From positions 1-22,998 of IMG/VR virus record IMGVR_UViG_3300023301_000115: a stretch of DNA of 22,998 nucleotides. One strand, given 5' to 3'. Shown here piece after piece: positions 834 to 22,998 of this stretch. The translations under genes were made by a program, and so were the position numbers. The DNA is from a virus. Under the pieces are notes generated by a model. The model was not told the origin of the DNA. It ran no database searches and saw only the letters and a program-made list of their open reading frames with translations. Numbering within the stretch: position 1 is the stretch's first letter; every line of letters begins with the position of its first letter.

Positions 834-1478
834 ATGAACACTACTATTATTGTATTATCCGCGTTAGCCGTTATTGCGGCGGCAGGCTACTTCCTTTATT
901 GGAAGGACAGTAAGGATGACAAGGATGAAGAGGTATTAACCCCCTTCCCTACACCCACCCCCCTACCGCCAGTACGGCCTACGCCTCCACAGACGGGGCC
1001 TGTTGTAGAACCGGCACCTGCACCCGCAGGGCCTCGGCCTACGCCGGGACCAGTTCCGGGACCTAAGCCAACACCACCCCCAGTCGCACCAGCCCCGAAG
1101 CCGGACCCTACGGCACTGTACAACTTCGCAGTTGCACGCAAAGTTAAGAAGATTGATTTCTCTAAGCTGCGTGATATAGGTGAAGTGCAGTTAGGTGATA
1201 ACCGAGTTGATCGTCTTACAAATGTAGTATTTACATTTAAAGATGATGCTTCCTTTTATGGCTATATCGCCAAGGATTCTCACTTTAACAAGAGTGTGAT
1301 CTACCTTTGTAACAGCACAGGACGTGTATTTGGTTTCGCTATCAGCGCGCCGGGTGCTAAAGCGGCTGAACGCAAGGTTCAGTACACCAAGGGACGTTTT
1401 AAAGAGGGTGCTTACCTCGTACAGGTTTCTGATGGAACCCACACGGGCTCGCACTTTCTGCGTCCCCGCGGCAACTAA
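834..1478 (+). CDS. Membrane-anchored proline-rich protein with C-terminal globular domain (TonB-like layout)
   Basis: 214 residues; function not recognised. Visible layout: an N-terminal membrane anchor (about residues 4-22, IIVLSALAVIAAAGYFLYW), a charged patch (KDSKDDKDEE), a proline-rich stretch of nearly 60 residues (about 35-92, with PTP, PVP and PAP repeats), then a 120-residue domain rich in beta-type sequence. The DNA under the linker is repetitive; CGGCCTACGCC occurs at 975-985 and 1035-1045. A membrane anchor plus a rigid proline linker plus a C-terminal domain is the shape of TonB and of some periplasm-spanning proteins. Here it may place the C-terminal domain near wall or outer membrane, perhaps as a spanin substitute; that is inference. 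GAGAGGT at 817-823 supports the ATG. Confidence 0.72.
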   Translation: MNTTIIVLSALAVIAAAGYFLYWKDSKDDKDEEVLTPFPTPTPLPPVRPTPPQTGPVVEPAPAPAGPRPTPGPVPGPKPTPPPVAPAPKPDPTALYNFAVARKVKKIDFSKLRDIGEVQLGDNRVDRLTNVVFTFKDDASFYGYIAKDSHFNKSVIYLCNSTGRVFGFAISAPGAKAAERKVQYTKGRFKEGAYLVQVSDGTHTGSHFLRPRGN

Positions 1479-2909: not shown

Positions 2910-3308
2910 GTGAGTGTAACTAAACAACTACCAGATGGGTGGGCCTCCGTGATTGCGAGAGAGTACCAAGCAGGTGCCTCCGATACCGAGGTGCGTGCTA
3001 AGCTGCGCGTGACTAAGGCCCTGTGGGAAAGCCTATACAAGAGTGCAGATTCGAGCTCTTTTAAAGAGGTAGTAGATCTAGGCCGCATGCTAGCCAAAGC
3101 ATGGTGGTTAGAGGAGGGACGCAAGGCCCTACGCGATAAGACCTTCAACGCAGCTTTATGGCACATGAACATGAAGAACAGGTATGGCTGGTCAGACAAG
3201 TCTGAGATCCATACTAAGACAGATCATATGATGTCCTCCGATGAGCTAGACAACGCCATTGACGAGGCTGTCAGAAAAGCCCAGCGCCTGCGTTTGGGTA
3301 CCGGCTAA
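2910..3308 (+). CDS. terS: Terminase small subunit
   Basis: 132 residues. The small terminase binds the packaging start site on concatemeric phage DNA and hands it to the large subunit. The N-terminal half (about 10-50) is helix-turn-helix-like (ASVIAREYQAGASDTEVRAK, then a recognition-like helix). The segment KTFNAALWHMNMKNRYGW (about 78-95) closely matches the conserved LW-MNMKNR-GW pattern of many phage small terminases. The C-terminus is a charged helix that may contact the large subunit. Start is GTG 2910, with CGGAG at 2896-2900 upstream; the nearby ATG at 2905 runs into a stop after two codons. It sits just upstream of the large terminase, the usual arrangement. Confidence 0.85.
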   Translation: MSVTKQLPDGWASVIAREYQAGASDTEVRAKLRVTKALWESLYKSADSSSFKEVVDLGRMLAKAWWLEEGRKALRDKTFNAALWHMNMKNRYGWSDKSEIHTKTDHMMSSDELDNAIDEAVRKAQRLRLGTG

Positions 3309-3386: not shown

Positions 3387-4253
3387 GTGACAGACTCACG
3401 CCATCAAGATATCATCACAGAGGTGTACGGCCCCGCGGCCCTAACCCCGTTAGATGAGGATAGCACAGATGAGTCATTACTAACGCTTATACAGCAATGT
3501 GCGGATCTGGAGTCCGCCACTGCTCAGCGGTCGGGTAACACTGCATCATACGCCGAAAAGCTAGCCATACTGAATATCCTCCGAGCTGGGGAAGAGCGTG
3601 CTAAGTACCAAGGCCACTTTGCCTACTTCCCCTCTGAGGGACCACTACGGGCAGAGCTATATAAGAAACACATGCAGTTCTTCGATGCCGGTATGCTACA
3701 TAGAGAGCGTATCTTCATGGCCGCGAACAGGGTAGGCAAGTCGATCAGTGGTGGGTATGAGATGACCTGTCATCTTACTGGCATGTATCCCAAGTGGTGG
3801 ACAGGGCGTAGATTCCTTGATCCCACGGATGCGTGGGCAGCAGGGGATACCAGTCAGACCACACGAGATATTGTACAGAGAGTTCTCATGGGAGAAGTGT
3901 CGGACTTCGGTTCAGGTATGATTCCCCACGAGCTAATGGAAGAGATTAGAATGCGTCCCGGTGTTCCCGGGGGTGTTGACAGCCTTAAGATAAAGCACAC
4001 GTCGGGGGGATACAGCAACTTAGGGTTTAAATCCTTCGATCAGAAACGACGTGCATTCCAAGGAACATCAAAACATGTAATATGGCTAGACGAAGAGCCA
4101 CCCTACGAGGTTTACGGAGAATGTCTTATACGTACGATGACCACACACGGTCTAGTGTACGTAACCTTTACACCCCTACAGGGCCTTACTGCATTTGTAA
4201 CGGAGTTTCAAAAAGCTATAATGTCACAAGAGCTGGAGGCTGGTAATGTCTAA
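3387..4253 (+). CDS. terL: Terminase large subunit, ATPase half (split gene)
   Basis: About 288 residues from GTG 3387. An in-frame TTG at 3330, with GGAG at 3315-3318, is the alternative start and would give 307. This is the packaging motor: Walker A is AANRVGKS (about residues 112-119), Walker B with catalytic acids is HVIWLDEE (about 230-237), and the coupling-type segment VYVTFTPLQGLT (about 257-268) follows. All match gp17-like phage terminases. It ends (QELEAGNV) just where such proteins normally continue into the nuclease domain, but TAA stops it at 4251-4253. The nuclease is encoded by the next gene in the +1 frame. The last eight bases overlap that gene's start (ATGTCTAA). No conserved ATPase segment appears missing, so this looks functional rather than decayed. 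Confidence 0.85.
   Translation: MTDSRHQDIITEVYGPAALTPLDEDSTDESLLTLIQQCADLESATAQRSGNTASYAEKLAILNILRAGEERAKYQGHFAYFPSEGPLRAELYKKHMQFFDAGMLHRERIFMAANRVGKSISGGYEMTCHLTGMYPKWWTGRRFLDPTDAWAAGDTSQTTRDIVQRVLMGEVSDFGSGMIPHELMEEIRMRPGVPGGVDSLKIKHTSGGYSNLGFKSFDQKRRAFQGTSKHVIWLDEEPPYEVYGECLIRTMTTHGLVYVTFTPLQGLTAFVTEFQKAIMSQELEAGNV
4235..4239 (+). promoter_or_regulatory. Strong Shine-Dalgarno for the terminase nuclease gene
   Basis: GGAGG lies six bases before ATG 4246, inside the 3' end of the ATPase gene. It is one of the best ribosome sites in the window. It supports independent initiation, or termination-reinitiation, of the nuclease polypeptide rather than a chance frameshift. Confidence 0.7.
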
Positions 4254-4974
4254 GTCCATTGTCATGGCGGGCTGGAATGATGCAGTCCACCTAGGGGAAG
4301 AAGAGAAGAAAGAGATGCTGGCGGCATGCGAGCCTCATCTTCGACGGGCACGCTCCGAGGGAGTGCCCTCATTAGGTTCCGGCGCCATATTCCCAGTACC
4401 TGAATCCGAGTTTGTTATTGATCCCGTACAAATACGCCCATGGTTCCACAGATGTTACGGATTGGATGTAGGCTGGAACTACACAGCCGCTGTATGGGGT
4501 GCTCTAGACAAAGAGACTGATATCCTCTATCTGTACGACTGCTACAAGCGCGAGAAGGCAGAGCCAGAAATACACTCCGCGGCTATTAAGCTGCGTGATG
4601 GTAAAAACACACAGTGGCCGGGGGTGATTGATCCTGCTGCTAGAGGTAGAGGACAGGCAGACGGTACACAGCTCCTGCAGCTATATCGTAAGCAGGGATT
4701 GAAGCTACGGGTGGCTGATAACAGCGTAGATCCCGGCATCTACAGAATATGGTCGCGCCTATCTACAGGTAGGCTTAAGGTAGTACGGGGTCCTATGACC
4801 CAGTGGCTGGAAGAATATCGTATGTACCGTAGGGATCAGAATGGTAAAATTGTAAAGACACACGATCACCTTATGGATGCGACTCGCTACCTAGTATCCT
4901 CTGGACTTACCCATGCGCTGCGCCTTACCCCACAACGCACCTTGCAAACATCATCTAGAAACTACGGGTTTTAA
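4246..4974 (+). CDS. terL: Terminase large subunit, nuclease half (split gene)
   Basis: 242 residues. This is the RNase H-like headful-cutting domain of the large terminase. Expected metal-binding acids are all visible: D74 in GLDVGWN, D129 in VIDPAARG, and D207/D211 in HDHLMDATRY. The N-terminal GWNDAVHLGEEEKKEM and GSGAIFPVPE correspond to the linker that in one-piece terminases directly follows the ATPase. The two genes together therefore reconstruct a normal-length large subunit (about 530 residues). It starts at ATG 4246 behind GGAGG and overlaps the ATPase stop by eight bases. The frame upstream is open only back to 4222, so no longer N-terminus exists. Alternatives are a +1 programmed frameshift or an assembly indel. 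Confidence 0.85.
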   Translation: MSKSIVMAGWNDAVHLGEEEKKEMLAACEPHLRRARSEGVPSLGSGAIFPVPESEFVIDPVQIRPWFHRCYGLDVGWNYTAAVWGALDKETDILYLYDCYKREKAEPEIHSAAIKLRDGKNTQWPGVIDPAARGRGQADGTQLLQLYRKQGLKLRVADNSVDPGIYRIWSRLSTGRLKVVRGPMTQWLEEYRMYRRDQNGKIVKTHDHLMDATRYLVSSGLTHALRLTPQRTLQTSSRNYGF

Positions 4975-4977
4975 ATA

Positions 4978-7341
4978 ATGGTACACAACATAGATTTAGA
5001 TATGGACAGCATTCCCGATAAAGTTGAGGATGTGCCCGAGGAGATTACCACCATGCTGGCTACTATAGATACAGCATTGATGCAGCTATGCTCCTCCCTG
5101 TCCGTTAAGTTCACTGACTACGCTTCTAAGAGAACTGCCAAAGAAGAGGAGTGGGTACAAGCAGAGCGTCAGTACTCTGGTAGTCTAGACATCGAAGATG
5201 ACAAGAAGCTGAGAGCACTCGGCGGATCTCGTGCGCACTCATCTCCCCCCATAGTAAACATTACACGACCCAAAACAAATATCGCTATCGCCCGTATGCA
5301 GGATATCCAATTCCCTCTCGGCGGTAACTACAATTTCATACTAGAACCAACAGAAGTGCCAGAGCTGCGGAAGGCTTTGAAGGATGACACACCCGTAGAA
5401 GAGGAGCAGGAGCCGGAAGAGATGTCTATGGCTGGGACGCCTATGGCACCCATGGATCCTACTGCTGAGGAGGGCCCCCCACCGGAGCCAACCCAAGCCC
5501 CTACCATAGCTGATATAGCCAGATCTATTATGTCCGAGGCCAAAGAGGCCGCGACTGCTATGCAGACACAGATACGTGATCGCCTTACAGAGGCTAGCTA
5601 CGGTAAGAAAGCACGTAATTCCATGGATGATATGTGCCGGTTAGGCACTGCTGTTATTAAAGGTCCTGTACATAAGCAGAAGATTGACCGCAAGTACGAC
5701 AGGGTCCCCACATCAGATGGGGATTCTATCGAGGCACTGACCTTGACAGAGCGCACCATACCATCCGTACAGTGGGTAGATCCCCGTCTTGTGTACCCAG
5801 ATCCGGATGCAAGGCCGGGCACGGACATGGAGGATATCTTTGAGGTCCACTTAATGACAGCCCGTACGGTATCTAAGCTGGCATCTAACCCCGCGTTTAT
5901 GCGCGAGAGAGTACGCAAGGTACTAGGTACCGAGCCCGACATTAGCTCACTGGGCTCCGCTATACAAAGCCTATCCTTAGTAGGCTCTGCCGGTACCCGT
6001 ATACAAAATCGCTATGCAGTTAAGGAATACCACGGATCCATAGACAAGCAGGTTCTGCTTGATGTGGGTCTAATCAGTGAGGAACAGAAAGAGGACAGCC
6101 TGTTCTTGCCACAGGGCGAGGTATGGTTCTGTAATAACCACGTCATACGAATTTCCCTGTCACCACTAGAAGCGGATGATAGTGTACCTTATTTCTTCTG
6201 TACATGGGAGGATGATAAGTCCAGCATCTTTGGTCATGGTATACCCTATCTTATGCGGCATGCCCAGCGCGTGGTAAACTCATCATGGCTGATGTTGCTA
6301 GATAATGCCGGACTCACCGCAGGTCCTCAGATTGTACTGAATCGTGAGATGATTAGGCCTGCATCACCCGAAGAGGGGTGGCGCATAGAGCCTATGAAGG
6401 TGTGGTTCATGACAGAGTATGGCGCTAATGTTCAGGAAGCCATGCAATTCGTTAATGTACCTACACAGCAAGAGTCCATTGCAAACATCACTGAACTAGC
6501 GATGACCTTTGCCGACATAGAGTCGGCTATACCCGCTATCCAATCGGGGGAGATGCCTTCCGGTAATAACACACTGGGTGGTGTGGCTATGGTACTTACC
6601 GCCTCGCACATTGTACAGCAGAGAGTGAGTGAAAGGTGGGACGATAATATAACCGTGCCCCTTATACGTCGCTTCTACGACTGGGAAATGCAGTATAGCG
6701 AGGACGAGAATATCCGCCGCGGGGATTTGAATGTTAAAGTAGGTGGTGCTACAGAGCGGATTGACAAGCAAGTTAAAGCACAGGACATTGAGCGCATCCT
6801 AGGTTTGGCGGGATCTAACCCCGACTTCCAGAAGCACATCGACGCGGATGCCGCCTTCCGGGAGCTTGTAGCTACTACACGCGCAGGTGACATTATCCTG
6901 AGCCTCGAAGAGGTAGCACGCAGAGAGCAGGAGGCCGCTGCACAGCAGCAAGAGGCCCCACCAGACGCCGAGACTATCAAAGCGCAAGCAGCTATGCTGT
7001 CCGCGCAGGTTAAGCAGCAGGCGCTGGAGATCAACCAGCAGATGGCCCAAGCTGAGTTAGAGATGAACTCACAAATATCTCAGGCTAAGCTAGAAAACGA
7101 GCGCATCAGGATGCAGGCCACGCAGCAGGAAGGCTTTATGAAGGTGCAGCTAGCCCAGATGGATCGAGAGCAGAAGCTTCTTGAACTGGCGGCTAAGGGT
7201 GAGATGACACAGTCAGAGCTGACACAGAAATTGCAGATCGCTGTTATGACAGAGGAGACTAAGCGCATTCTTAAGGAGGCAGACATATCCCAGTTCCGTG
7301 AGGAGCTGAGTATTAAACGGGAAATGGGAACAGGAATTTAA
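4978..7341 (+). CDS. Portal protein
   Basis: 787 residues, within the range of large podovirus portals, which form the dodecameric ring through which DNA enters and leaves the head. The N-terminal quarter contains the segment NITRPKTNIAIARMQDIQFP, then NYNFILEPTEVPEL. I recognise this style of sequence (a run of helix then LxPTPVPEL) from podophage portals. An acidic, proline-rich insert follows (about 130-165). The last 130 residues (about 655-785) are Gln/Ala/Glu-rich helix with coiled-coil character, probably the barrel or crown reaching into the capsid. It lies between terminase and scaffold, the canonical slot. The start at 4978 has only a weak upstream site (CGGG), so translation may be coupled to the terminase three bases before. 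Confidence 0.87.
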   Translation: MVHNIDLDMDSIPDKVEDVPEEITTMLATIDTALMQLCSSLSVKFTDYASKRTAKEEEWVQAERQYSGSLDIEDDKKLRALGGSRAHSSPPIVNITRPKTNIAIARMQDIQFPLGGNYNFILEPTEVPELRKALKDDTPVEEEQEPEEMSMAGTPMAPMDPTAEEGPPPEPTQAPTIADIARSIMSEAKEAATAMQTQIRDRLTEASYGKKARNSMDDMCRLGTAVIKGPVHKQKIDRKYDRVPTSDGDSIEALTLTERTIPSVQWVDPRLVYPDPDARPGTDMEDIFEVHLMTARTVSKLASNPAFMRERVRKVLGTEPDISSLGSAIQSLSLVGSAGTRIQNRYAVKEYHGSIDKQVLLDVGLISEEQKEDSLFLPQGEVWFCNNHVIRISLSPLEADDSVPYFFCTWEDDKSSIFGHGIPYLMRHAQRVVNSSWLMLLDNAGLTAGPQIVLNREMIRPASPEEGWRIEPMKVWFMTEYGANVQEAMQFVNVPTQQESIANITELAMTFADIESAIPAIQSGEMPSGNNTLGGVAMVLTASHIVQQRVSERWDDNITVPLIRRFYDWEMQYSEDENIRRGDLNVKVGGATERIDKQVKAQDIERILGLAGSNPDFQKHIDADAAFRELVATTRAGDIILSLEEVARREQEAAAQQQEAPPDAETIKAQAAMLSAQVKQQALEINQQMAQAELEMNSQISQAKLENERIRMQATQQEGFMKVQLAQMDREQKLLELAAKGEMTQSELTQKLQIAVMTEETKRILKEADISQFREELSIKREMGTGI

Positions 7342-19479: not shown

Positions 19480-22400
19480 ATGTCACTTGAGTCATATCTG
19501 TCATCCTTAGACTCCACTGGTGTGGAAAATGCCACCACTATGCGTTCTGTAATAGAGTTCCCATATGAAGGGCAGGTATATAGTATAGCTACCGAGGGCT
19601 ACGGCACCGAGGATGCTGCTATAGATGCATTCCTTAGTGGGCAAAATGAGCCGGTATCCTACGACCCTCTGGAGGAGGGAGCACCGGAGGAGTTTGATAT
19701 TGCCCTAGATCCGGCACAGCCGGAGGCTAGTGCTGAGTGGGGATTTACGTTCCCAGAACGCATTGCTCCCGAGGTAGTAGAGGAGCCTGAGAAGGGTGGG
19801 CTATTCAGCGCAGATTGGCGAGAGATTGGTGGGGGTATAGTAGATTCTGTGCAGGGAGCAGGACAGAGCTTTGCAGCTGGTACTGTAGATTTCCTCGACG
19901 ATATAGTTAAGGAACCATTACGAGGGCTGGGAGTACCCGATGAGATGCTGCTGCCCACCAACGAGGCGGGTGAAAAGGTAGATCCTATAGGGGATACGGT
20001 CGCCTCCTTACGCTCTAGTGCTAAAACTAACTTCGAGGGTGCGCAAGCTAGTGCCCCAGATAATGTAGTAGGGGAGTTTGCATATAACGCCGCTAACGCG
20101 ACTATACAGATGATACCCGATGTAAGTCTATCTCTAGCCCTAAAGAAACCGACTGCCGGTTTAATCTCTATGGGGTCACGGGTATTTGGCCTGTCCTACG
20201 ACAAGGCCCAGACTGATGGTCTGTCTCAAGAAGAATCTGTGAACCATGCGGTACGTCAGGTATTATATGAGGTGGGTCCTGAGAAGGCCTTTAGGTTCTT
20301 CGATATGGTTCCGGGGGCTAAGTCCGCTAAGCTGTGGGCAGCTACCTCTATGGCAGAGGGCCTAAGTGAGGCTGTTACATCTGCATTAAACCAAGGCGAC
20401 GAACTGACCTTCCAAGATAAAGAATGGGAAGGTTGGGTACCGTTCCTTAAGCGTATAGGCTATGACGCCGCGCTAGGTGTTGTCATGGGTGGGGCATTAA
20501 GCGCCCCCACTGCCCTCGGCAGCTCTAGGGAACCTACCCCTCAGCAAAAAGCAAAGGCTATAAGTATCGCCTTAGATGCGTGGGTAAGTGATACAGAATT
20601 AAATACGGAAGAGTCTCTTCAATCGTCTGCCGTCACTTCATTGGACCCCCAGTATAACGATCCTGCTGTAATAGATCCTATTACGGGACTAGATTCGGAC
20701 ATCAGTCCACAGGACATCTCCACCCAATCAGATCTACCAGACGTGGTACCCCTAGATGTGCCCGATGTGGGGCCAGTGGTAGCACCTGTAGCAGCTAATG
20801 ATCCCAATCAAATAGCGCCCCCTGTGGAGCAGGAAGTACTGGAGGATCTGGTAGGTGCCGATCCTATCCAGCAGGAAGTAGAGGATCTGGTAGGAGGTAC
20901 GCGTGAAGCTCTCATCAAAGACAATACCAAACAACAACTCCAACTTCTCGTAGAGAAGAGGACGGGATCTAGACCCCCTGCCTCCCAGACTAAAGCACAG
21001 CTAGTAGAGAGCGTATTCGAGGAAGCACAGGTACTTCTCAATACTACGCGAGGGGGTGATCTATCGAACCCGGATACCTTTAGCCCAGAGGTGGTAGATA
21101 CGGCAGAGCAAATACCAGATATAGATCCTACGGTATCTTCACAGGAGGGTATTGGCGATAGTGATACGGATACTCTCAGCCCCGAGAGCGGCACCCCCAC
21201 AAGATCGGTAGTTCCTGCCCACGCAATGGAGGAGTGGTCCGCTCTAGGCATATCTGCGGATACAGTTGAATCTTATGGAGTGACAGGGGATCTGCAACGG
21301 GGTGCTCCCGAGATAGCTATGACTAGGGTGCAGACTGCCAATGGCGGGGGTGTCTTATCATACGTGGTAGAGCATCTGGGTGATATCAGTAACAGGGCCT
21401 CGCCCATGCATGGCTTCGATTGGGGTCGTGAGACTGCAGTACACAAGGCTGAGCAGGTCTTACGCACTCTGCGCAACGAGTACGGGTTTCAGAAAGAGCA
21501 CGATGAAAACATCTTCTCTAACTCTAAGAGTGCTGGTGTGCCCGTAGGCCGACACAGAACAAAGCTAAATATGGAGTTAAGCGCTTATGCAAAGGAGCAT
21601 AAAGCCTTACCTGTTAATAATGAAGTACAGAGACTGGCCCGTGATGCAGCGGTAGCGGTTGGAGAACAGCGATTTGATGATGCGGCTGTACTAATTGAGC
21701 AGTTCATAGCTATAGCCGGTAACCGAGATACCTATATTGCTGCACTCAAGAACCCCACTAACGACCCCACTGCTACTACTGATGGTGATAGTGAAGCGGA
21801 TACTCTCAGTCCGGGGCCCTCTACGGGCTTTTCAGGCGACCCATTTATATCACGGCTGGCAGCTACAGTCGAGGCGGCTGAGGGCATGCCACAGAAAGGT
21901 AGTGGTAACTCCTATAAGCAGTGGTTAGATGGTAACCAGAAGCGAGGTAAGCTTAAACAAACCGAGCGGGATTGGATGGGTCTGGACGAGTGGTTGGATT
22001 CTAGAGGTACGGATACTATCACACGGTCAGAAGTGCAAGAGTTTGTCCGTAACAACACAGTAACCATCAAAGAAATTACACGTGAGGGTGTAGAGGCTAC
22101 GCAGTACAAGCCATGGACCCTAGCGGGGGGTACCGCGTACAAGGAAATCTTATTAACATTACCACCTACTAAAGATAAGGATTCCAACTATACCGGGGGG
22201 CACTATAAGGAGCCTAATGTGCTCGCCAGTGTGCGCATTAAAGATCGTGACGGGCCTAATGGAGAGCGCATTCTATTTATAGAAGAGCTCCAATCTGACT
22301 GGCATCAGGAGGGTCGGGCGGAGGGTTATGCACCAAACGTAGATACCTCCGGCTGGACTGCAAAAAAGGTTTCACTGGCGATTGGTAGCAGATCACTGGA

Positions 22401-22998
22401 CTCATGGAAGATTTATGACAGCAGTGGTACTTCTGTGCATGAACTACCTGTCGGTAGCGCCAAATCTCCTGCGGAAGCATTGGAGAAAGCGAAACATCAA
22501 CTAAACACTGCTGATACTGGGAAGCTTCCAGACGCGCCCTTCAAGAAGACATGGCCTATGCTGGCTATGAAACGTATGGTACGTTACGCCGCTGAGAATG
22601 GGTACAACAGTCTGTCGTGGACTACGGGCGCACAGCAGAATAAACGCTATGATCTAAAGAAACAGGTAGATACTATAACGTGGTCAAAGGATTCCAACAC
22701 GGGGGAGTACACCGTAGATTTCTGGAAGGACGGGGAAGAGCTGGGAAATCTATACGACCCTGTACCGGCACGCCGCTTGTCGGGAATAGTAGGTAAGGAT
22801 ATAGCAAGTACCATCGTAAATGCTCCCGCCGACCAGACAACTGGAGATATTACAGGCGATCAGTTAACTGTGGGGGGAGAGGGCATGACTGCCTTCTATG
22901 ATCGTATCCTCGTTAACGAGACTAATAAGCTAGTCAAGAAGTGGGGAGGGCGTGTTACACAGCAGAACTTGGGTCTGCGCGCCCGTACACGATGGCAA
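19480..22998 (+). CDS. Large polyvalent virion protein, incomplete at right edge
   Basis: The frame runs unbroken from ATG 19480 to the last base (1173 codons), with no stop in the window. GAAAGG at 19465-19470 precedes the ATG. Modules by eye: an acidic N-terminus; a hydrophobic region (about 215-350); disordered Asp/Pro/Glu linkers (about 370-470); a SAP/HeH-like segment (about 475-515, KQQLQLLVEKRTGSRPP, KAQLVESVFEE); and a mid module (about 570-765). Last comes a domain containing ILFIEELQSDWHQ, PDAPFKKTWPMLAMKRMVRY and VGGEGMTAFYDRILVNETNK. I recognise that last combination from giant 'polyvalent' proteins of phages and mobile elements, where it is often followed by more effector domains. 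Such proteins enter the host with DNA and act early. Biochemical activity is unknown. Confidence 0.8.
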   Translation, partial: MSLESYLSSLDSTGVENATTMRSVIEFPYEGQVYSIATEGYGTEDAAIDAFLSGQNEPVSYDPLEEGAPEEFDIALDPAQPEASAEWGFTFPERIAPEVVEEPEKGGLFSADWREIGGGIVDSVQGAGQSFAAGTVDFLDDIVKEPLRGLGVPDEMLLPTNEAGEKVDPIGDTVASLRSSAKTNFEGAQASAPDNVVGEFAYNAANATIQMIPDVSLSLALKKPTAGLISMGSRVFGLSYDKAQTDGLSQEESVNHAVRQVLYEVGPEKAFRFFDMVPGAKSAKLWAATSMAEGLSEAVTSALNQGDELTFQDKEWEGWVPFLKRIGYDAALGVVMGGALSAPTALGSSREPTPQQKAKAISIALDAWVSDTELNTEESLQSSAVTSLDPQYNDPAVIDPITGLDSDISPQDISTQSDLPDVVPLDVPDVGPVVAPVAANDPNQIAPPVEQEVLEDLVGADPIQQEVEDLVGGTREALIKDNTKQQLQLLVEKRTGSRPPASQTKAQLVESVFEEAQVLLNTTRGGDLSNPDTFSPEVVDTAEQIPDIDPTVSSQEGIGDSDTDTLSPESGTPTRSVVPAHAMEEWSALGISADTVESYGVTGDLQRGAPEIAMTRVQTANGGGVLSYVVEHLGDISNRASPMHGFDWGRETAVHKAEQVLRTLRNEYGFQKEHDENIFSNSKSAGVPVGRHRTKLNMELSAYAKEHKALPVNNEVQRLARDAAVAVGEQRFDDAAVLIEQFIAIAGNRDTYIAALKNPTNDPTATTDGDSEADTLSPGPSTGFSGDPFISRLAATVEAAEGMPQKGSGNSYKQWLDGNQKRGKLKQTERDWMGLDEWLDSRGTDTITRSEVQEFVRNNTVTIKEITREGVEATQYKPWTLAGGTAYKEILLTLPPTKDKDSNYTGGHYKEPNVLASVRIKDRDGPNGERILFIEELQSDWHQEGRAEGYAPNVDTSGWTAKKVSLAIGSRSLDSWKIYDSSGTSVHELPVGSAKSPAEALEKAKHQLNTADTGKLPDAPFKKTWPMLAMKRMVRYAAENGYNSLSWTTGAQQNKRYDLKKQVDTITWSKDSNTGEYTVDFWKDGEELGNLYDPVPARRLSGIVGKDIASTIVNAPADQTTGDITGDQLTVGGEGMTAFYDRILVNETNKLVKKWGGRVTQQNLGLRARTRWQ
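20829..20894 (+). repeat. Imperfect tandem repeat in the polyvalent gene
   Basis: GCAGGAAGTA (20829-20838 and 20871-20880) and GAGGATCTGGTAGG (20842-20855 and 20881-20894) recur in order, 42 and 39 bases apart; the first copy has an extra CTG codon. Encoded repeats are QEVLEDLVG and QEVEDLVG. It lies just before the SAP/HeH-like segment and looks like a recent in-frame duplication in a linker. Confidence 0.75.
21157..21179 (+). repeat. Linker repeat copy 1 (DTLSP) in the polyvalent gene
   Basis: Twenty-three bases match 21787-21809 at 21 positions and are in the same frame, 630 bases (210 codons) apart. They encode GDSDTDTLSP here and GDSEADTLSP in the other copy. The two copies bracket one protein module. 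Confidence 0.75.
21787..21809 (+). repeat. Linker repeat copy 2 (DTLSP) in the polyvalent gene
   Basis: Second copy of the linker at 21157-21179, 21 of 23 bases identical, two mismatches at positions 9-10 of the unit. It precedes the C-terminal domain with the EELQSDWHQ motif. Confidence 0.75.

What the first reader, a model, noticed from the sequence alone, without database searches (positions are those of the whole stretch)
3387..4974. Large terminase split into separate ATPase and nuclease genes
The packaging motor is normally one polypeptide. Here the ATPase half (Walker A AANRVGKS, Walker B WLDEE) stops at 4253, and the nuclease half (D74, D129, D207/D211) begins at 4246 in the +1 frame with its own GGAGG. 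Both halves keep all visible key residues, and the junction falls in the interdomain linker with no loss of conserved sequence. This suggests a genuine two-subunit terminase with independently made, perhaps non-equimolar, motor and nuclease. Alternatives are a +1 programmed frameshift giving a fused minority product, or a single-base assembly error.
Basis: partly seen in the sequence, partly recalled or inferred. Interest (0 to 1): 0.82.

Follow-up and report, generated by a model that had tools for sequence, protein, structure and literature searches.

The report
Phage DNA-packaging motor split in two
In this phage the enzyme that pumps DNA into the virus shell is made as two separate proteins instead of one, and many related phages do the same, with the cut always at the same spot inside the motor domain; this appears to have gone unremarked and gives a natural two-piece packaging motor to study.

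Summary
The split is real and is not peculiar to this window. ORF 3387-4253 (ATPase half) and ORF 4246-4974 (nuclease half) overlap by 8 nt (ATGTCTAA), and the second has GGAGG 6 nt before its ATG. Among 206 non-redundant relatives from viral contigs and bacterial genomes, 91 have a split TerL and 115 a fused one. The cut always falls in the same variable loop between the C-motif (TFTPL) and WDDvPHL. Junctions range from short overlaps (-8, -4, -1 nt) to gaps of up to about 7.5 kb filled with other genes, in all three relative frames. No intron was found in 31 loci and no intein was seen at the junctions examined. An assembly error and a conserved programmed frameshift are therefore very unlikely. 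The halves probably must pair about 1:1; independent, non-equimolar subunits are not supported. Split and fused states interchange on the tree (one split clade rejected, AU p=3.9e-72). HNH/EndoVII cassettes in the loop suggest how the fission arose. New variant of a known kind.

The parts
3387..4253 (+). TerL-N: ATPase half (288 aa): Walker A, Walker B and C-motif; ends 24 aa after TFTPL. The GTG start at 3387 aligns with the MTD start of the sister phage L001
   Evidence: Pfam Terminase_6N pos 1-150 E 4e-17; phrog_31467 E 5e-67
4235..4239 (+). GGAGG Shine-Dalgarno, 6 nt before the nuclease ATG
   Evidence: sequence; 28/45 adjacent-junction loci have an SD match of 4 nt or more against 27% of control positions
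4246..4253 (+). 8-nt overlap ATGTCTAA of nuclease start and ATPase stop, likely translationally coupled
4246..4380 (+). First ~45 codons of the nuclease gene: last ATPase-core strand and lid helices (ATPase-domain material on the nuclease polypeptide)
   Evidence: (Terminase_6N pos 169-214 in residues 10-55)
4246..4974 (+). TerL-C: lid plus RNase H-like nuclease half (242 aa), D74, D129, D207, D211
   Evidence: P22 gp2 nuclease 4dkw E 6e-19; 4dkw Z 24.7
2910..3308 (+). Candidate small terminase (gp3-like; weak match, below Pfam cut-off)
   Evidence: GP3_package E 0.034, 14.8 bits against cut-off 29.4
4978..7341 (+). Portal / head-tail connector, starting directly after TerL-C
   Evidence: phrog_332 E 8e-36, phrog_1216 E 7e-13

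Best explanation
This is a two-gene P22/podovirus-type large terminase. The terL ORF has been divided at a tolerant surface loop inside the ATPase domain, between the C-motif strand/helix and the last core strand. The ATPase cistron ends in the overlap and the nuclease cistron is started separately from its own Shine-Dalgarno, probably with coupling (inferred). The two polypeptides then assemble non-covalently: the nuclease polypeptide supplies the last strand of the ATPase sheet and the lid, restoring one TerL protomer, and the motor ring is built of such two-chain protomers (inferred). Related phages have made or undone the same division many times. Insertion of HNH/EndoVII-type or other cargo genes into the loop, with later loss of the insert, is the likely route (inferred from intermediates).
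For: Split at the same site in 91 of 206 non-redundant relatives, among them prophages of isolates such as Vibrio galatheae, Kushneria aurantia, Neptunomonas marina and Sphingomonas melonis. Junctions vary within the window's own clade: -8, -4, -1, +394. Gaps of about 5.3-7.5 kb in L027, L300, L180 and L255 (with locus coordinates). No intron in 31 loci; no intein sequence at the junctions printed. SD enrichment at nuclease starts. Catalytic residues kept. Purifying selection on both halves (window vs L001 pN 0.27/0.24 against pS 0.78/0.84; other pairs with computable ratios dN/dS 0.05-0.43). AF2 of fused homologue L022: junction loop pLDDT under 50, then strand 296-301 and lid helices before the nuclease at ~336. 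The same strand is lost when the nuclease half is folded alone. Close pair L115 fused / L077 split by an Endonuclease_7 gene; HNH genes with 4-nt overlaps at both ends in L069, L135, L182. One split clade rejected, AU p 3.9e-72.
Against: No protein-level evidence: association, stoichiometry and activity are inferred. In the window itself a frameshift product would have a normal linker length (about 33 aa), so a minority fused product is not excluded. SD motifs are weak at some relatives' junctions. L001, the sister phage, has no standard start codon at the aligned position (CTG, or a TTG 17 codons upstream). The window's exact junction was not found in any other contig.
Confidence: 0.83

Rival explanations
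1. Programmed +1 frameshift (or bypass) joins the two frames into one TerL.
For: The halves overlap in the +1 frame and a joined product would have a normal loop length (about 33 aa against a fused median of 30). Terminase decoding by bypass has been proposed for Streptomyces phage Hau3 (PMC5009743).
Against: The relative frame is not conserved: +2 in 31, +1 in 11, 0 in 3 adjacent junctions, and it differs within the window's clade. Many relatives have whole genes between the halves. The P-site codon GTC before TAA cannot re-pair with TCT in the +1 frame (inference from base pairing). The nuclease gene has its own SD and start.
Confidence: 0.05
2. Assembly or sequencing error in the window.
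For: The window is a single metagenomic virus record and its exact junction has no second copy in the collection.
Against: The sister phage L001-L003, from three metagenomes, is split at the same place. So are many other relatives, isolates included, some with kilobase gaps. A well-placed GGAGG precedes the ATG, and each half keeps its reading frame.
Confidence: 0.03
3. Split or intact intein, or self-splicing intron, restores one polypeptide, as in known interrupted terL genes.
For: TerL genes with inteins (Mic1, PMC7156551) and group I introns (Jug phages, PMC12363816) exist.
Against: The window has no intervening sequence: the cistrons overlap. In relatives the N half ends 14-37 aa after TFTPL and the C half starts just before WDD. 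No Rfam intron in 31 loci.
Confidence: 0.02
4. Independent motor and nuclease subunits made in different amounts.
For: Separate starts; the nuclease has a strong SD and the ATPase a weak one (GTG with GGAA only). Nuclease modules have been exchanged between ATPase lineages.
Against: The cut is inside the ATPase domain: the lid and last core strand are on the nuclease chain, so the ATPase half alone lacks parts that known TerL motors use.
Confidence: 0.1

Closest known systems
Single-chain TerL of P22 (gp2), Sf6 gp2, D6E, P74-26/G20c and T4 gp17
   Same: Same ATPase and RNase H-like nuclease folds and catalytic residues
   Different: One polypeptide there; here two genes with the cut inside the ATPase domain
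Fused terL of EBPR podovirus 1, Chlorobiaceae phage CV-1-33, StenR_269
   Same: Closest fused homologues in GenBank, 45-57% identical over both halves
   Different: Single ORF
Podoviridae sp. ct2G2228 (MW202785.1)
   Same: GenBank record with two genes both annotated 'large terminase protein', same split site
   Different: 133-nt spacer between the genes; no comment on the split in the record
terL interrupted by introns or inteins (Jug phages PMC12363816; Mic1 PMC7156551) or proposed bypass (Hau3, PMC5009743)
   Same: terL reading frame broken
   Different: Those restore one polypeptide by RNA or protein splicing or by bypass; none of these signs is present here
PHROGs phrog_31467 (matches the ATPase half, 'unknown function', 261 positions) and phrog_5653 (matches the nuclease half, 199 positions)
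   Same: They match the two halves separately
   Different: Not linked to each other or recognised as a split TerL

Membership tests
Large terminase (TerL), Terminase_6 / P22-type | ASCE P-loop ATPase with Walker A, Walker B, C-motif | tested here: met
Large terminase (TerL), Terminase_6 / P22-type | RNase H-like nuclease with acidic triad | tested here: met
   (4dkw Z 24.7, 31% id)
Large terminase (TerL), Terminase_6 / P22-type | Position next to portal (and TerS) | tested here: met
   portal at 4978; the TerS candidate at 2910 is only a weak match
Large terminase (TerL), Terminase_6 / P22-type | Both domains in one polypeptide (usual, not definitional) | tested here: not met
   shared by 91 of 206 relatives
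Programmed-frameshift terL | Conserved frame relation and slippery site at the junction | tested here: not met
Intron- or intein-interrupted terL | Intron RNA or intein blocks at the junction | tested here: not met
Two-chain TerL protomer | Physical association and joint activity of the halves | not testable with these tools
   needs co-expression and packaging assays

The most novel reading that the evidence does not exclude
A widespread, recurrently arising two-chain packaging motor in which the ATPase domain itself is completed in trans by the nuclease polypeptide. The loop at the cut acts as a landing site for mobile endonucleases and cargo genes and as an exchange point for swapping nuclease modules between phage lineages.
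Probability: 0.5. Interest if true: 0.75.

Novelty: new variant of a known kind. Interest (0 to 1): 0.62.

Why it matters
TerL is treated as one polypeptide and used as a universal phage marker gene. A naturally split motor, cut between the ATP site and the lid thought to transmit force, lets the ATPase core and the lid/nuclease be mixed, titrated and swapped without engineering, which makes lid-coupling models of packaging directly testable. It also means that length filters and one-gene TerL annotation will miss or mislabel these phages, and it documents recurrent gene fission of an essential motor protein.

Tried and rejected
Rfam on 31 sources including the window: only tRNAs, no introns. 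The N tails and C heads printed at the junctions showed no intein-like extension. Simulating a +1 fusion with a four-letter codon word gave a second unwanted shift, so a fused homologue was folded instead. Cultured phages checked (RHph_N3_2, KG853, JB8) have a single terL CDS. PDB sequence search with the ATPase half alone found nothing. NCBIfam has no model for either half above its cut-off. Nine literature searches found no description of a two-gene TerL of this kind; 'gene fission' in PMC3118219 concerned a tape measure protein. L023's extra gap gene looks HNH-like by eye but has no Pfam match. Exact-junction scan of viral contigs: none. The low N/C identity correlation in split loci (r 0.25 against 0.65) is partly due to one nuclease class; without it r is 0.50 against 0.64, so it is only weak evidence that split halves reassort more than fused ones.

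Full report
Observation. The window is a 22,998-nt virus record. ORF 3387-4253 encodes an ATPase half and ORF 4246-4974 a nuclease half in the +1 frame; they overlap by 8 nt (ATGTCTAA) and GGAGG lies 6 nt before the second ATG. A weak small-terminase candidate lies upstream (2910-3308) and a portal directly downstream (4978-7341). Pfam places Terminase_6N positions 1-150 on the first protein, and the end of the same model (169-214) plus Terminase_6C on the second. The protein division therefore falls within the ATPase model.

Relatives. Protein-level scans of viral contigs and of one genome per bacterial or archaeal species, plus a few GenBank phage records, gave 300 loci. Profiles of both halves, run over stop-to-stop ORFs, classed 163 as fused, 125 as split and 12 with one half only. 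After removing redundancy at 90% identity, 115 were fused and 91 split: 60 of 131 from IMG/VR and 29 of 70 from GTDB genomes. The sampling is not unbiased, because the profiles were built from split members. The site is always the same: fused proteins have mostly 24-40 aa (median 30; a few outliers) between TFTPL and WDD, and split N halves stop 14-37 aa (median 20) after TFTPL. About half of the split junctions are overlaps or near-abutments, mostly -4 (ATGA), -8 or -1; the others have gaps. In four of the loci first seen with one half, the nuclease half is about 5.3 kb (L027), 5.8 kb (L300), 6.2 kb (L180) and 7.5 kb (L255) downstream on the same strand (arithmetic from the locus ranges). In three records with a split TerL the ATPase profile finds only one copy, so there is no sign of a fused spare of this family there.

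What it is not. Within the window's own clade the junctions are -8 (window, L001, L226), -4 (L068), -1 (L004, L236) and +394 (L067), in two relative frames. Over all adjacent junctions the frame offset is +2 in 31, +1 in 11 and 0 in 3. A conserved frameshift is excluded by this and by the gapped loci. No intron reached threshold in 31 sources including the window. The halves examined carry no intein-like extension. An assembly error does not explain the sister contigs L001-L003 or the isolate genomes.

How it probably works. AlphaFold2 of the fused homologue L022, with 69 fused sequences, gave mean pLDDT 86.6. The equivalent of the split site lies in the only internal segment under pLDDT 50 (281-289). 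After it come a strand (296-301), two helices (311-331) and the nuclease domain. Known ATPase domains align to about 67-336 (P74-26 4znl, Z 21.2) and the P22 nuclease to 336-522 (4dkw, Z 25.1). The cut is thus about 45 residues before the domain boundary. The window's nuclease half folded alone (mean pLDDT 90.1) keeps the lid helices (18-27, 30-38) and the nuclease (from about 42-46), but the first residues, a strand in the fused model, become coil. Inference: this strand completes the ATPase sheet across two chains. A review states that the Walker A-region arginine of Sf6 TerL interacts with a lid glutamate after hydrolysis and that the lid or linker coordinates the two domains (PMC7617512). 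In this phage the Walker A arginine and the lid are on different chains, so a motor made without the nuclease polypeptide is unlikely to work. Independent initiation is supported by Shine-Dalgarno matches of 4 nt or more at 28 of 45 adjacent nuclease starts against 27% of control positions. Both halves are under purifying selection.

How it may have arisen. On a 206-row tree the split/fused state changes 26 times against about 67 for shuffled labels; starred branches alone force at least 14. A 44-row test rejects one split clade (AU p 3.9e-72). Direction (fission or re-fusion) is not told by the tree, and exchange of halves blurs it. A close pair shows a probable fission: L115 is fused, and L077, similar along its whole length, carries an Endonuclease_7 gene in the loop with a new start for the nuclease half. 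HNH genes with 4-nt overlaps at both ends sit in the same place in L069, L135 and L182. Other gaps hold ordinary cargo: Tad2-like anti-defence, Cpn10, gp49-like, HTH and TROVE genes. A simple reading is insertion of a mobile endonuclease or cargo gene into a tolerant loop, then loss or exchange of the insert, leaving overlapping cistrons as in the window. Nuclease halves with a WPHDG motif form one clade on the nuclease tree but need at least 6 changes on the ATPase tree, so nuclease modules have been exchanged at or near this junction, in fused and split forms alike.

Novelty. No paper found in the held library describes a two-gene TerL of this type. Known interrupted terL genes use introns (PMC12363816), inteins (PMC7156551) or proposed bypass (PMC5009743) to make one chain. 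PHROGs matches the halves with separate families, one of unknown function. One GenBank metagenomic phage carries two 'large terminase' genes without comment. Subscription literature could not be searched, so 'unreported' is provisional. Verdict: a real and widespread new variant of TerL; association of the halves and the motor mechanism remain inferred.

Noticed in passing
L192:6609-7202, L077:3634-3996, L069:2170-2643, L135:3492-4004, L182:2013-2570, L153:6729-7397: The space between the terL halves is an insertion hot spot: Tad2-like anti-Thoeris, Endonuclease_7, HNH (with AP2 or NUMOD4) and gp49-like genes, several with 4-nt overlaps to both terL halves.
   Followed up: partly
L024, L150, L151, L148, L160, L176, L237 and others (nuclease half): A second nuclease class with a WPHDG motif in place of the IDPA motif forms one clade on the nuclease tree but is scattered over the ATPase tree, which implies swapping of nuclease modules.
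   Followed up: partly
L180, L255, L300, L027: The terL halves are separated by 5-7.5 kb of other genes, in L180 including large ORFs of 962 and 590 aa.
   Followed up: partly
L020:4410-5414: ORF with an apparent internal duplication (zinc-ribbon-like plus chaperonin-10-like segment repeated) between the terL halves.
   Followed up: no
window 834-1478: Weak match to a Zot-like family (phrog_197, E 0.001); probably only a P-loop protein.
   Followed up: no
window 19480-22998: 1173-aa ORF open at the window end with an endolysin-family match in its C-terminal part, possibly a virion-associated lytic protein.
   Followed up: no
L001:2950-3008: The sister phage's nuclease half has no standard start codon at the aligned position (CTG, or a TTG 17 codons upstream inside the ATPase gene).
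   Followed up: no
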